A stretch of DNA of 64,000 bases from Macrolepiota albuminosa. Taxonomy: Eukaryota > Basidiomycota > Agaricomycetes > Agaricales > Agaricaceae. This document shows positions 40,411 to 52,176 of the stretch, piece by piece; the stretch's first letter is position 1; every line of letters starts with the position of its first letter. The stretch is from NCBI GenBank assembly GCA_027475525.1, contig JAMWFC010000113.1, positions 1,290,001-1,354,000 on the forward strand, written 5' to 3'. Below the pieces are notes generated by a model. It was not told the DNA's origin. It saw only the letters and a list, made by a program, of their open reading frames with translations, and ran no database searches. The translations under genes were made by a program, and so were the position numbers.

Positions 40411-40747
40411 TGTAAGAGATATTACTGGCTTACTCACACAAGACACAGAATCTGCCAAAGCAGTAGATTTCTCTGTACGTAGTGTAAGTAAAAAAGTATC
40501 TCCCCAAATACGAGTAAATACACTATAATTTAACGTAAATTAATTAAAGTAAATTAATTAGAGAAATAATTACTACTGTAATTATGTCCTCTAATACGAT
40601 ATGCTTCCCACACCCCTAAGGGTGAGTAAATTAATTAGAGAAATAATTACTACTGTAATTATGTCCTCTAATACGATATGCTTCCCACACCCCTAAGGGT
40701 GTGGATATGGTGAAATAATGAATAGGGACCTCGAAGAGGTCCCCCTG
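40411..40747 (-). repeat. Gypsy-4 5' LTR, main part
   Basis: Matches 18252-18516 with about one change (AAAGCAG versus AAAGCGG). After leaving out the extra 77 bases it is 260 long; its last five bases, TTACA, lie at 52182-52186 beyond Gypsy-5. The CCCTG ending at 40747 is repeated at 52177-52181. Confidence 0.93.
40548..40701. repeat. 77-base tandem duplication in Gypsy-4 5' LTR
   Basis: Copies 40548-40624 and 40625-40701. The 3' LTR has this segment once, so the second copy is not original. Confidence 0.92.
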
Positions 40748-40980
40748 TGTAGCGTAGTCCGCTATGTGGCGTTGGCCACATAGCTTTACTTACTGTATAT
40801 TAGTACATATTATATTATATTTATTATAATATAATATTTATTTACATTCGTATATAATTAGTTACTCAGCTGCTTACAAAGCAGCTTATTTTGTTGTAAA
40901 CTACATTGTCAATAGACCGGTCTGGTCTGATTCAGTGTTGTGTGCACACTAAGCTCTCTCAAATTCGTAACTTCGTTACA
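40748..40980 (+). repeat. Gypsy-5 5' LTR
   Basis: 233 bases, TGTAGCGTAG...CTTCGTTACA, with an AT-rich core (TATTATATTATATTT). It has the hairpins GCTATGTGG/CCACATAGC, AGCTGCTT/AAGCAGCT and a terminal GTAAC/GTTAC. Confidence 0.95.
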
Positions 40981-41072
40981 TTTTTTTGAATCCGCCAGCT
41001 AGGATCTATTGCCTAGCATCCGACGTCAGTCGTTGAGTTCGTTGACAGAACTCTATCAGCTTCTCGAGCTTC

Positions 41073-44000
41073 TTGCACAGCCACACCGTGCAAATTTCAA
41101 ACAGGGGATCGATGAGTAATCCCATACCTGCAGCGCCCACTGACGGCGGGCGAAATGCCCATGACCTACGGGGAGACCCAGCAGACACCCAGGACGCGTC
41201 AGCGTCCAATGCGGGTCAGGTAAGACCCAAGGCTCAAGACCGAGGTCAGAGTGCTGACCTGGCCGGGAATGAGAGCGAGGCCCGGAGAGCTGAAAGCTCA
41301 CAGCAGGACGGCCCGCAACGCCTCCAAGACAAGATGCCCGGGGGATTAACGCCCCCAGTTACGCAGTTGCCAGGAGGACCGCGACGGTCTAGCCGATTGG
41401 CTTCCAAAGGACCCCCGCAGGACGGCCGACAGTTAACCGGCGCCTATGGCGCCCCAGGAGACGCTGAGTCGTCAGTACGGACTGGGAGAACCCTCCCTGC
41501 GAACCGGAGCAGTGGGACCAGGCGGTCCACAGCGGGTCCAATGCCTTCTAAAGTAGCGGAAGCCCGCTTAGAAGAGGTACCGGAGGAGGCTGCAAGGCCT
41601 GAAGGATACCGCGCGGAAGATCGATTTCCGCGCACACCAGCAGTGGAGGAAGCTCAGGAGGTTGTAGAACTTCCAGAGGAGGTGATGGAGTCGTCAAGTG
41701 ACGACGACGTCAGAGCAGAGGAACAGCGGCTGAAAACCGCGTACACCGTGCGCTTGCGGGTGTTCTGGGACTTGCACCCAGAGGTGATGAAATACACCAC
41801 CCAAGCGCGACTCGAGCGCTACGCGTCAGCCCATATAGTAGCACTTAGGCGACAAGGGCACGAAGTGCCCAATGTATTCAGTACGAAATATACTGATTTA
41901 ATGGTGAGAGTGCTCACTATGGAGCTGCAAATGTATGTGCAGCGTAAGGCCACACGACAATCGGGGGTCTCGACCCCCTGGAGCCACACGTCCGAAGAAT
42001 GCTCGGCACGACGCAATCAAGACGTCGGAATCGAGCTAGTGGAGGCACTAGCACGGGCGCAAGAAGTGCCCGAAGTAAGACCGGTGAGTACTTTTTATAC
42101 TCCAGCAGGACAAGGGTGGTGTGAGGAGCCCCCGCACATGCGTAACCATGACCGTAGGACAGATATGTCAGGTCCGGATGGGCACGATAGCACTGTGCTC
42201 AAAGTGGAAAGCGAGGCATCCGTGATGCCGCGCGTGCCCATGGCCGAAACGTTGAGCAACAGAGTCGCGTACCAACGTATGCGCAATGGCGACCTCAGGA
42301 CTAAGGGACAGTCCCTTATAGACGATCAGGGCATCGTATTCGAGGGCACTAAGCCCATTGACGAGATGCGTCGTCAATTCGTCACGCAGGGTCAGGAGAA
42401 TCAAGCTTCTCCAGGTCCAGGGCGGCGCAACGATCATGATCGAGGAGACTTCCTCAATCGAGATGGCGCCACGAGACGTGATGTCCCTGGTAACGGCCAG
42501 GATGACGGCCCTAGGTTGATTCCTCAAGACGAGGGCAATTATGCCCACAGTCGAGGAGGCTCGGGACGTCCCCCGCAAGGTGGACGGGGAAAGTCACTTC
42601 CCCATGCCGCTGACTTGGCGACTAGATCCCCGGGTCAGCGGGAAGCCATCCGAATGCATCGTGAGGCCATGCACGATCGCCTGCATCGAGTAGTCGATGA
42701 TGCCCTGGGCGTAACCTTACGGTTACCAGACGGAGTGAAGCTGCGTAAAGCAGACAGTAGGCACATTCGCGCCTATACAGGCGCGTCCAAGTTCAGCGAC
42801 CTGGAAGATTGGGCGATGGATGTATGCACCCATCTTGCCATGTGCTTATACGGAGGTGACCGTATGGAACGAGAACGAATTTTCGTTCTGCCTGAGTTCT
42901 TGGCCGGAGAGGCCATGGGTTGGTTTCGACGGGCAGTACTGCACGTCAATCGTGTCCAATATGACTGGACGTTTAAAGGAGTCCTTACAGGACTGTACGA
43001 TCGATTCGTACACCCCTCAACGCTCCAGGATGCAAGGCGGGACTTCCAGTCCGCCAAGTATACCGAGAAGTTGGGAGTACAAGGGTTCTATGATACCCTT
43101 AATGACCATGCCCAGAACATGGCAGTATACCCGGACGGGTATACAATGCTCGAAACGTTCTTGGATGGCATTCCAGCGGATATGCGCCGCTATTTGATAC
43201 GTGAGGACGGCTTGTCCCCAGAAGTCAACGATGTGGAAGAATTCGTGGCATATGCCATCCGGTATGAGCAGTCTCTGAAGACTGCTAACCACTACAAACA
43301 TCGGAGTGGACACAAAGGGGGATCCAGGCGACTACCGCCTGGTGGGACGCCCTCACGGGGTCAGCATGTGGGGACCTTCCTGGCCAAGAAGACCGATCTG
43401 GATCGTGACCGCAACACGCGGTTTGTTGTACGCAAGACCCCTGTTGCGAACCAAGGGCGGAGCCGCCCACGCCCAGAGCGGGCGCTGGACGGAGAACGTC
43501 CTAAATCAAGGCCGGACTTCAAACTGGCCAACCCACCAGGTCAGTCGGGGACTTGTTTCGCGTGTGGCCAACCAGGCCACTACGCTACCAACTGCCCTGC
43601 GAAGCCAGGACCCCCGAGGAAGGGGTATACACCCCGCGCCCACCTTCGAGCTGCACATACTGCAGCCGCGAGTGGGAGTGACGGAGACGTATCTGCCGAT
43701 TCTGAGGCGGAGAACCCCACAAACGACCAGGAGCCCCCAGAGGAGGCATCGGGCGCCGAGCCCGAGAGTGTGGTCATGGAGGGGGAGGAGTACGTCACAG
43801 TCGACGTATATGACGACGTCTACGACAATGAGTATTACAGTCGCGACAGCGACTCTGAGTGCCTAGCGGCGATGACGGATTGGCCGTCCGCAAATGACCC
43901 CGAACGGAATAACGTGGTTCGGATGAAGAAGGTGACCCTTCGTCGTGCAGAGGGCACTTTGCAGCGCCCTACATTGAAGCGAGCAGACAAGGAGTGCCTG

Positions 44001-51500: not shown

Positions 51501-51898
51501 GGCGCGAGGGCACCATTGGCGATCGTCAACGCCTGATGCTCCAGCAGCAGGACAGTCGTCGTGCATACGACGACGCGCTCGCCAAGGGGATGTACCTCTC
51601 TATCGGGCAAGACATTCATGCCCGCGAAATCTGGACGCGCCAGTACCCGTCCGACACCGGGGATCTGCCTGATCCCCAACCAACCGTCTCGGGGTCAACC
51701 ATCGACCCCAATCTCACACTGTCCCCCCTCCGGGACTATGACGATTCCCTGCCTGTGGCAGGGCCTTCGGGTACTTCTTACGCGCCCGCACCCGAGGATG
51801 AACTCCTCGACTACGACATGGACGACGCGACTGCCGATCCATTCCGGGAGCCTGGGGACTCTCCCATTGCCCCCGTCCCAGACTTACCGACGGCATGA
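48505..51898 (+). CDS. Gypsy-5 ORF3, prion-like N-terminus and conserved C-terminal region
   Basis: With the two extra 77-base copies (49992-50145, 51152-51305) counted once, one frame runs 48505-51898: 1079 residues. The first 190 or so are rich in Q, P, G, Y and M, with QQQQQLQQQQ, like prion-like assembly domains. A charged middle part follows, then the region shared with Gypsy-4 ORF3 (LGVVIYRDHTIEHQHSFFGAG, ALLYGRPGTSN, IHWRSLFGFALVRAL, VFARPGLYKEAV, WADHAYTYGVTYL). No membrane segment, zinc knuckle or known enzyme motif is seen. It starts about 100 bases after pol, with no other coding capacity between, so it may need its own or a spliced transcript. Function unknown. Confidence 0.8.
49992..50145. 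repeat. 77-base tandem duplication in Gypsy-5 ORF3
   Basis: Copies 49992-50068 and 50069-50145; shifts the ORF3 frame. Counting it once restores the frame. Confidence 0.92.
51152..51305. repeat. second 77-base tandem duplication in Gypsy-5 ORF3
   Basis: Copies 51152-51228 and 51229-51305; same effect. Counting it once joins the conserved block TSDVLRVLLHNQIPV, which matches Gypsy-4. Confidence 0.92.
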
Positions 51899-51943
51899 CC
51901 GTCATATTATCTCGAGACCGTAGCTCGGTCTGATTGGGGGGTG

Positions 51944-52176
51944 TGTAGCGTAGTCCGCTATGTGGCGTTGGCCACATAGCTTTACTTACTGTATATTAGT
52001 ACATATTATATTATATTTATTATAATATAATATTTATTTACATTCGTATATAATTAGTTACTCAGCTGCTTACAAAGCAGCTTATTTTGTTGTAAACTAC
52101 ATTGTCAATAGACCGGTCTGGTCTGATTCAGTGTTGTGTGCACACTAAGCTCTCTCAAATTCGTAACTTCGTTACA
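51944..52176 (+). repeat. Gypsy-5 3' LTR
   Basis: Identical by eye to 40748-40980; preceded by the polypurine run ending at 51943 and followed by CCCTG. Confidence 0.95.

What the first reader, a model, noticed from the sequence alone, without database searches (positions are those of the whole stretch)
40411..52176. Gypsy-5 coding sequence is saturated with short perfect hairpins
Perfect stem-loops with 5-9-base arms and 2-8-base loops recur every few tens of bases across gag, pol, ORF3 and LTRs. Examples with arm length: 41192-41207 (6), 41243-41260 (7), 41611-41633 (8), 42711-42726 (6), 42768-42785 (6), 42848-42865 (6), 42872-42889 (8), 42994-43012 (7), 48665-48681 (7), 48697-48715 (8), 48729-48747 (7), 49366-49386 (9), 49413-49429 (7), 49443-49459 (7). 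By chance an arm of 7 or more with such loops is expected about once per 2 kb. Gypsy-1 and Gypsy-3 do not show this on reading. A structure layer on top of coding sequence could be a folded genomic RNA, a defence against RNA silencing, or the trace of a reverse-transcription process that perfects quasi-palindromes.
Basis: seen in the sequence. Interest (0 to 1): 0.92.

Follow-up and report, generated by a model that had tools for sequence, protein, structure and literature searches.

The report
Fungal retrotransposon saturated with short hairpins
An abundant jumping gene in a mushroom-type fungus carries a short perfect hairpin roughly every 50-80 bases along its length, several times more than chance, and comparison of its copies suggests that selection keeps them, much as in the folded genomes of some RNA viruses.

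Summary
40411-52176 holds 155 perfect stems (arm >=6, loop 2-10) against 22.3+-4.4 in dinucleotide shuffles; codon-preserving shuffles agree. Mirror repeats are not enriched, and the excess fades above about 15-nt loops. Other Ty3/gypsy gag-pol stretches and six Copia loci do not.
Template switching is not supported: in the related family 6 of 46 multi-base differences are one-armed against 7.6 expected (few cases in this family). Selection is: outgroup-defined stems change at 0.61 (0.48-0.74; this family) and 0.81 (0.69-0.93; relative) of background, chance stems at 0.93-0.94. [quoted passage not shown] PMC7642675).
Best reading: GORS-like structure in LTR retrotransposons. Whether RNA or single-stranded DNA folds, and the benefit, are unproven; no compensatory-change excess was found. 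Exact 77-nt duplications are probably assembly artefacts.

The parts
40746..52176 (+).
   Evidence: identical 235-bp repeats at both ends; Pfam gag CCHC, protease, RT, RNase H, integrase; hairpin counts
40746..40980 (+). 5' LTR; contains perfect stems with 8-13-bp arms
51942..52176 (+). 3' LTR, identical to the 5' LTR
41073..44423 (+). gag-protease open frame (zinc knuckle, RVP_2); 39 stems in 41115-44420 against 8.9 in codon shuffles
44439..48230 (+). pol open frames (RT, RNase H, integrase, Tf2-1-like SH3 in 45468-48227); 9 + 26 stems against 2.2 + 6.0; the second frame runs to a stop inside a 77-nt tandem duplication at 48122-48276
48505..51898 (+). ORF3 region in three open-frame pieces around 77-nt duplications; no Pfam match for the two pieces scanned (48505-50358, 50094-51533); 26, 14 and 10 stems against 5.2, 3.0 and 1.1
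49366..49386 (+). example stem-loop, 9-bp arm, 3-nt loop
42872..42889 (+). example stem-loop, 8-bp arm; among copies one pair is seen as G-C, G-T and A-T
18252..19117 (-). left (3') part of the related hairpin-rich element, with LTR 18252-18512; 12 stems against 1.5
30440..40748 (-). right part of the related hairpin-rich element (ORF3-like, pol, gag, LTR 40411-40748); 16 against 5.6, 42 against 10.3, 9 against 1.0 in three pieces
19118..30439 (-). nested Ty3/gypsy element with 948-bp repeats and DUF4100 match; its 23077-29237 has no excess (4 against 10), 20066-23076 a modest one (14 against 6.3)

Best explanation
The element and its close relatives carry genome-scale ordered RNA structure. 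Their full-length transcript is written, largely through synonymous codon choice, as a string of short unbranched stem-loops with arms mostly of 6-9 bp and loops of 2-10 nt. Shown here: the excess, its restriction to short loops, its restriction to this lineage among the elements sampled, and slower change of stem bases. Inferred: the folded molecule is the sense RNA, and the selected property is overall foldedness rather than individual hairpins. The benefit I think most likely is a compact, poorly accessible genomic RNA, shielded from Argonaute-guided silencing (Piwi-domain matches are present in the genome) or easier to package, while stems stay too short to be good Dicer substrates. The benefit was not tested.
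For: Excess over dinucleotide and codon shuffles. No mirror-repeat excess at spacers of 2-10 nt (22 against about 24) and little excess above ~15-nt loops. Present in 20 of 20 sampled copies (49-79 stems per 6.5 kb against 10-14) and 10 of 10 copies of the related family (25-43 against 9-15), and in the stretch beside copy L017 that follows another pol of the clade and has no DNA similarity to the window beyond 104 bp (40 against 6.8). The excess follows element borders, stopping and resuming around a nested element. Stem substitution ratio 0.61 (0.48-0.74) and 0.81 (0.69-0.93), against 0.93 (0.79-1.08) and 0.94 (0.86-1.02) for chance long-loop stems. Third codon position, non-CpG: stem 11/1408 against flank 46/2989, and 33/443 against 79/799. 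Register effect, 34/38/52 stems against 10.4/8.9/7.5. Folding-energy difference 18.0% and 8.2% against -2.5 to +5.2% in four other elements of this genome.
Against: No strand signal: 200-nt fold z is -3.13 sense and -3.01 antisense. One-mismatch stems (arm 7) favour G-U no more than A-C in this family (3.2x against 3.8x), unlike four RNA phages (3.5x against 2.2x). The substitution-based G-U/A-C ratio is 1.23 (0.97-1.56); phage pairs gave 1.09 (0.84-1.46), so that test is weak. Double changes keep Watson-Crick pairs no more than matched background (78 against 74.5 at arm >=6; 162 against 154.9 at arm >=5; 25 against 37.9 at arm >=7), while phages exceeded it (98 against 73.3 at arm >=5). Mismatches inside stems become pairs more often than elsewhere even among private changes (11 of 23 against 31%), which a mutational bias would also give. 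By one measure stem pairs in this family change at nearly the background rate (private 0.169 against 0.184 per pair, shared 0.163 against 0.169). Local recombination among copies could inflate the selection signal. No RNA data.
Confidence: 0.64

Rival explanations
1. Mutational origin: the element's reverse transcriptase, or host replication of its DNA, switches template within short quasi-palindromes and perfects them, so hairpins pile up without benefit.
For: Short-loop preference and strand symmetry fit; mismatches inside stems become paired more often than background also in private changes (11 of 23 against 31%). Template switching between short inverted repeats is documented in yeast genes (PMC8604942, abstract and outline seen).
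Against: It predicts multi-base changes confined to one arm: 6 of 46 against 7.6 and 15 of 90 against 16.4 in the related family; only 6 and 11 usable cases in this family (1 and 2 one-armed against 1.2 and 2.4). It does not predict slower change in stems. Other elements in the same nucleus lack the pattern, so it would have to be specific to this reverse transcriptase.
Confidence: 0.18
2. Selection on single-stranded DNA or cruciforms (cDNA during reverse transcription, or chromosomal DNA), not on RNA.
For: Sense and antisense fold equally and there is no clear preference for G-U over A-C.
Against: Perfect short stems fold alike on both strands, so symmetry says little; the phage control shows that the substitution test has little power. 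Stem sequences share no motif (commonest hexamer GACGAC or its complement in 3 of 134 stems), against a DNA-binding site.
Confidence: 0.1
3. By-product of composition, codon usage or protein repeats.
For: Codon shuffles give somewhat more hairpins than dinucleotide shuffles (8.9 against 5.9 in gag). Direct repeats of 6 nt are also in excess at spacers of 3 and 6 nt (14 against 2.2; 10 against 2.7) and mildly at long range, so some local repetitiveness exists.
Against: 39 against 8.9 with protein and codon usage held fixed; mirror repeats at chance; also in LTRs.
Confidence: 0.03

Closest known systems
[quoted passage not shown]
   Same: Excess folding energy spread over the genome, made of consecutive unbranched stem-loops; pairings poorly conserved between relatives; paired sites less variable (PMC7642675, abstract and passages seen). 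18.0% and 8.2% here against 7.5-10.7% for HCV and about 15% for SARS-CoV-2 as given there.
   Different: Here it is an LTR retrotransposon of a fungus; hairpins are very often perfect and short-looped; no infection, so persistence would mean something else.
RNA phage genomes (MS2, GA, SP, PP7; Qbeta in some tests)
   Same: Densely folded coding RNA; perfect short stems 2.9x over chance in MS2, PP7, SP and GA together.
   Different: Total folding excess is larger in MS2 and Qbeta (29.4% and 31.0%), but perfect short hairpins are fewer (77 in 14.9 kb against 137 in 10.8 kb); compensated changes exceed background in the phages, not here.
Ty3 and Ty1 genomic RNA of budding yeast
   Same: LTR retrotransposon genomes whose RNA structure has been mapped; stable, highly structured regions make up to 30% (PMC11381356, section 29 and passages seen).
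   Different: Described there as a mosaic of stable and dynamic regions, A-rich; I saw no mention of hairpin saturation in what I read.
Quasi-palindrome correction by template switching
   Same: Acts on short inverted repeats with short spacers.
   Different: Its one-armed multi-base signature is not seen.

Membership tests
Ty3/gypsy LTR retrotransposon (Metaviridae) | identical LTRs, gag zinc knuckle, protease, RT-RNase H-integrase order | tested here: met
Ty3/gypsy LTR retrotransposon (Metaviridae) | chromodomain after the integrase (chromovirus) | tested here: inconclusive
   not in the Pfam scan of the window frames, which shows a Tf2-1-like SH3 domain; PF00385, recalled as the chromodomain, is listed for some relatives
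GORS | folding energy at least 3% below shuffled controls | tested here: met
   18.0% over 28 windows; related element 8.2% over 26; threshold from PMC3950689, passage seen. The threshold alone does not discriminate here: the gypsy element at 2012-5956 (4.6%) and Copia locus L052 (5.2%) also pass it, L054 (-0.5%) and 23077-29237 (-2.5%) do not
GORS | structure spread over the genome as sequential stem-loops | tested here: met
   all eight 1.5-kb bins over the element are 4.7-11x over shuffles; median gap between hairpins 46 nt
GORS | pairings poorly conserved between relatives | tested here: met
   unchanged stem pairs between the two window families are about as background predicts: 136 against 139.8 and, the other way, 86 against 74.0
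GORS | paired sites less variable | tested here: met
   ratios 0.61 and 0.81; but
GORS | the folded molecule is the sense RNA | tested here: inconclusive
GORS | physically folded in the cell; linked to persistence | not testable with these tools
   needs probing and functional assays
Template-switch quasi-palindromes | multi-base changes confined to one arm | tested here: not met
   related family 6 of 46 against 7.6 and 15 of 90 against 16.4; this family 1 of 6 against 1.2 and 2 of 11 against 2.4

The most novel reading that the evidence does not exclude
A lineage of fungal LTR retrotransposons has evolved genome-scale ordered RNA structure as a passive counter-defence against RNA silencing. 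Short hairpins along the whole transcript hide it from Argonaute and RNA-dependent RNA polymerase while staying too short for Dicer, which would help explain why the most hairpin-saturated family seen here lies at more than a hundred places in closely similar form (117 matches at 94% or more; copy numbers of other families were not counted).
Probability: 0.25. Interest if true: 0.87.

Novelty: new variant of a known kind. Interest (0 to 1): 0.72.

Why it matters
In the papers I saw, GORS is described for positive-strand RNA viruses. My full-text searches (open-licence papers only; listings and abstract starts seen, at most 15 rows each) showed no report of it in an LTR retrotransposon; that is not proof that none exists. 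If it holds, transposons meet the same pressure on RNA folding as persistent viruses, in a host without interferon. The high copy number offers a natural experiment: many copies in one nucleus, beside unstructured elements as controls.

Tried and rejected
Template switching: tested and not supported. A first covariation count with slid partners looked positive, but with a better null (Watson-Crick pairs outside stems, CpG-stratified) double changes match expectation, so I do not claim covariation. First stem-conservation estimates were biased because stems were found in one of the two sequences compared; replaced by outgroup-defined stems with a chance-stem control. Inverted matches at the longer spacings used for the chance stems are themselves at about 1.2-1.3x of shuffled density. 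Shared variants are dominated by CpG decay (seen); the non-CpG reduction (13/884 against 112/4266; 19/521 against 284/4858) agrees but is weak at third positions (9/255 against 59/1323). Copia loci: arm >=6 counts are 0.4-1.1x in six of six, but two similar ones (L055, L056) have 4 and 5 stems of arm >=8 against 0.7 and 0.8. Relatives in viral contigs: two scans, none confirmed. Genome contigs gave seven distant contigs in bacterial or archaeal MAGs: hairpin ratios 2.9, 2.0, 1.7, 1.5, 1.0, 0.9 and 0.6. Host chaperonin genes as a control did not complete, so host genes were not tested apart from non-element parts of the window.

In one search only one hairpin per 10-column bin, and the nearest copy with at least 3 differences, were kept. 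One search aligned 14 of the 32 sequences held (4 of 20 fetched family copies, 8 of 10 of the related family, 2 window elements); rest on that set. In some searches sister pairs qualified out of 21 and 11 sequences. On re-reading I lowered the best explanation from 0.66 to 0.64 and raised the mutational rival from 0.16 to 0.18, because the one-armed test rests mainly on the related family.
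Full report
What is there. The window lies in a 100-Mb genome in 129 contigs. Among the 120 best database relatives of this element's pol, those with an organism name are Agaricomycetes as I know them (Mycena, Phanerochaete, Trametes, Agrocybe), so a mushroom-type fungus is likely; the species was not identified. The element has identical 235-bp LTRs at 40746-40980 and 51942-52176 and Pfam matches for a gag zinc knuckle, protease, reverse transcriptase, RNase H, integrase and a Tf2-1-like SH3 domain. 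The ORF3 pieces scanned have no Pfam match. One DNA search scored 40 places at 97-100% identity, and a protein search 117 places at 94% or more; both are lower bounds. The stretch 40411-40745 is read as part of a related minus-strand element, 18252-40748, split by a third element with 948-bp repeats, 19118-30439.

Is the hairpin pattern real? Yes. All 14 listed hairpins check. There are 155 perfect stems of arm >=6 against 22.3+-4.4, and 36 of arm >=8 against 1.5. Holding protein and codon usage fixed, all six coding segments exceed the maximum of 100 shuffles (observed/maximum, arm >=6: 39/17, 9/6, 26/12, 26/13, 14/7, 10/4). Arms of 5 or more (loop 3-8) cover 26% of bases against 5% in shuffles. 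The excess is about 6-10-fold for loops of 3-8 nt (2-nt loops 11 against 3.2), falls to 2-4-fold at 9-15 nt and is small or absent beyond (16-20 nt 13 against 10.4; 21-30 nt 20 against 21.5; 31-150 nt about 1.2x). Mirror repeats with spacers of 2-10 nt show none (22 against about 24). Direct repeats show an excess at spacers of 3 and 6 nt and about 1.2x at 81-150 nt.

Where is it? In 1.5-kb bins the excess is 4.7-11x throughout this element and 1.9-4.4x over 30001-40500. Other bins range from 0 to 2.1x, except 1-1500 (4.0x), 18001-19500 (5.9x, the left end of the related element) and 21001-22500 (2.6x). The pattern stops where the nested element begins at 19118 and resumes where it ends at 30440: 12 against 1.5 before, 16 against 5.6 after, 4 against 10 in the nested 23077-29237, but 14 against 6.3 in its 20066-23076. 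Twenty of 20 sampled copies and 10 of 10 copies of the related family show it (some 6.5-kb stretches include flanking DNA). Six Copia loci do not at arm >=6 (0.4-1.1x), though two similar ones have 4 and 5 stems of arm >=8 against 0.7 and 0.8. The stretch after a pol of the same clade next to copy L017 does show it (40 against 6.8).

Mutation or selection? Three tests matter. First, when a stem differs between copies by three or more bases, template switching predicts the differences in one arm; they are spread as coin flips in the related family (6 of 46 against 7.6; 15 of 90 against 16.4) and in the few cases of this family (1 of 6 against 1.2; 2 of 11 against 2.4). Second, stems were found in an outgroup copy and differences counted between two sister copies, against background matched for codon position, CpG and G+C: 80 against 130.8 (ratio 0.61, 0.48-0.74) in this family and 118 against 146.2 (0.81, 0.69-0.93) in the related one. 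Stem-like matches with 30-110-nt loops gave 0.93 (0.79-1.08) and 0.94 (0.86-1.02). At third codon positions outside CpG the counts are 11/1408 in stems against 46/2989 in flanks, and 33/443 against 79/799. Third, in this element stems are most enriched in the reading registers where synonymous positions can form most pairs (34, 38 and 52 against 10.4, 8.9 and 7.5); the relative leans the same way less clearly (13, 12 and 16 against 3.6, 3.7 and 3.2). Against selection: a per-pair count on this family found stem pairs changing at nearly background rate, and private changes at mismatches inside stems making pairs in 11 of 23 cases against 31% elsewhere.

RNA or DNA? Not settled. Fold z-scores are alike on both strands, as perfect stems must give. 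In one-mismatch stems of 7 pairs G-U is not favoured over A-C here (26 and 38 observed, 3.2x and 3.8x), while four RNA phages favour it (40 and 27; 3.5x and 2.2x). By substitutions the ratio is 1.23 (0.97-1.56) here and 1.09 (0.84-1.46) in two phage pairs, so that test cannot decide. Compensated double changes do not exceed background here (78 against 74.5; 162 against 154.9 at arm >=5) but do in phages (98 against 73.3 at arm >=5). This is a real point against a fixed fold conserved pair by pair; it fits turnover of hairpins with general foldedness retained.

Comparison with known systems. By folding-energy difference the element scores 18.0% and its relative 8.2% (28 and 26 windows of 350 nt, 12 dinucleotide shuffles each). 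Four other elements in this genome score -2.5, -0.5, 4.6 and 5.2%, MS2 and Qbeta 29.4 and 31.0%. In PMC7642675 (abstract and passages seen) HCV is given as 7.5-10.7%, SARS-CoV-2 about 15%, the highest coronavirus 23.4%, with consecutive unbranched stem-loops, poorly conserved pairings and fewer variants at paired sites. That set of features is matched here. PMC3950689 (passages seen) puts the GORS threshold at 3%, which two of the four other elements also pass. Ty3 RNA in yeast is described as a mosaic of stable and dynamic regions (PMC11381356, section 29).

Most likely mechanism. Shown: excess, lineage restriction among the elements sampled, slower change in stems. Inferred: the sense RNA folds into a string of short hairpins and general foldedness is what is selected. 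The benefit is open. Argonaute-type sequences are present (24 of 26 matches over the Piwi cut-off, at ten places, some with stops), so escape from silencing is possible, as are compaction and packaging of an 11-kb RNA. Neither was tested. Template switching could still supply raw material, but it is not the main cause on this evidence.

Caveats. The assembly carries exact 77-nt tandem duplications that look like unmerged overlaps of a k=77 assembly graph (inference; the k-mer convention is recalled). They interrupt frames and may make some copies mosaics. Mosaic copies or gene conversion could bias; the chance-stem control, slightly below 1, suggests the bias is small.

Noticed in passing
window 2-155, 2533-2686, 3837-4099, 7514-7667, 33571-33725, 40266-40421, 40548-40701, 48122-48276, 49992-50147, 51152-51305, 60774-60929; L033: Tandem duplications of 77 nt (one of three units), most of them 100% identical, at different places in different copies; probably unmerged k=77 assembly overlaps. 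They interrupt reading frames (48122-48276 holds the pol stop) and would mislead anyone annotating this genome.
   Followed up: partly
window 18252-40748 and 19118-30439: Nested insertion: a minus-strand Ty3/gypsy element (LTRs 18252-18512 and 40411-40748) split by another element with 948-bp 99.9% identical repeats.
   Followed up: partly
L059 (contig filed under an archaeon MAG): A 9.4-kb contig with a distant (31% identity) match to the pol also shows hairpin excess (47 against 16) and 11.5% folding-energy difference; likely eukaryotic contamination in a MAG, and a hint that the pattern is wider than this genome.
   Followed up: partly
own genome copies: Strong CpG decay in the family copies: private variants per site 0.33 at CpG-capable sites outside stems against 0.04 at other sites, consistent with methylation.
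   Followed up: no
window 20066-23076: Part of the nested, otherwise unstructured element has a few long perfect stems (11-bp arm at 20937-20968, 10-bp at 21621-21649); 14 stems against 6.3.
   Followed up: no
L031 positions 1-1995 (oriented): Two kb next to a family copy without similarity to the window hold 18 stems against 2.9; possibly another hairpin-rich element.
   Followed up: no
window 1-1500: 8 stems against 2.0 expected in a stretch I did not assign to an element; it overlaps the 77-nt duplication at 2-155.
   Followed up: no
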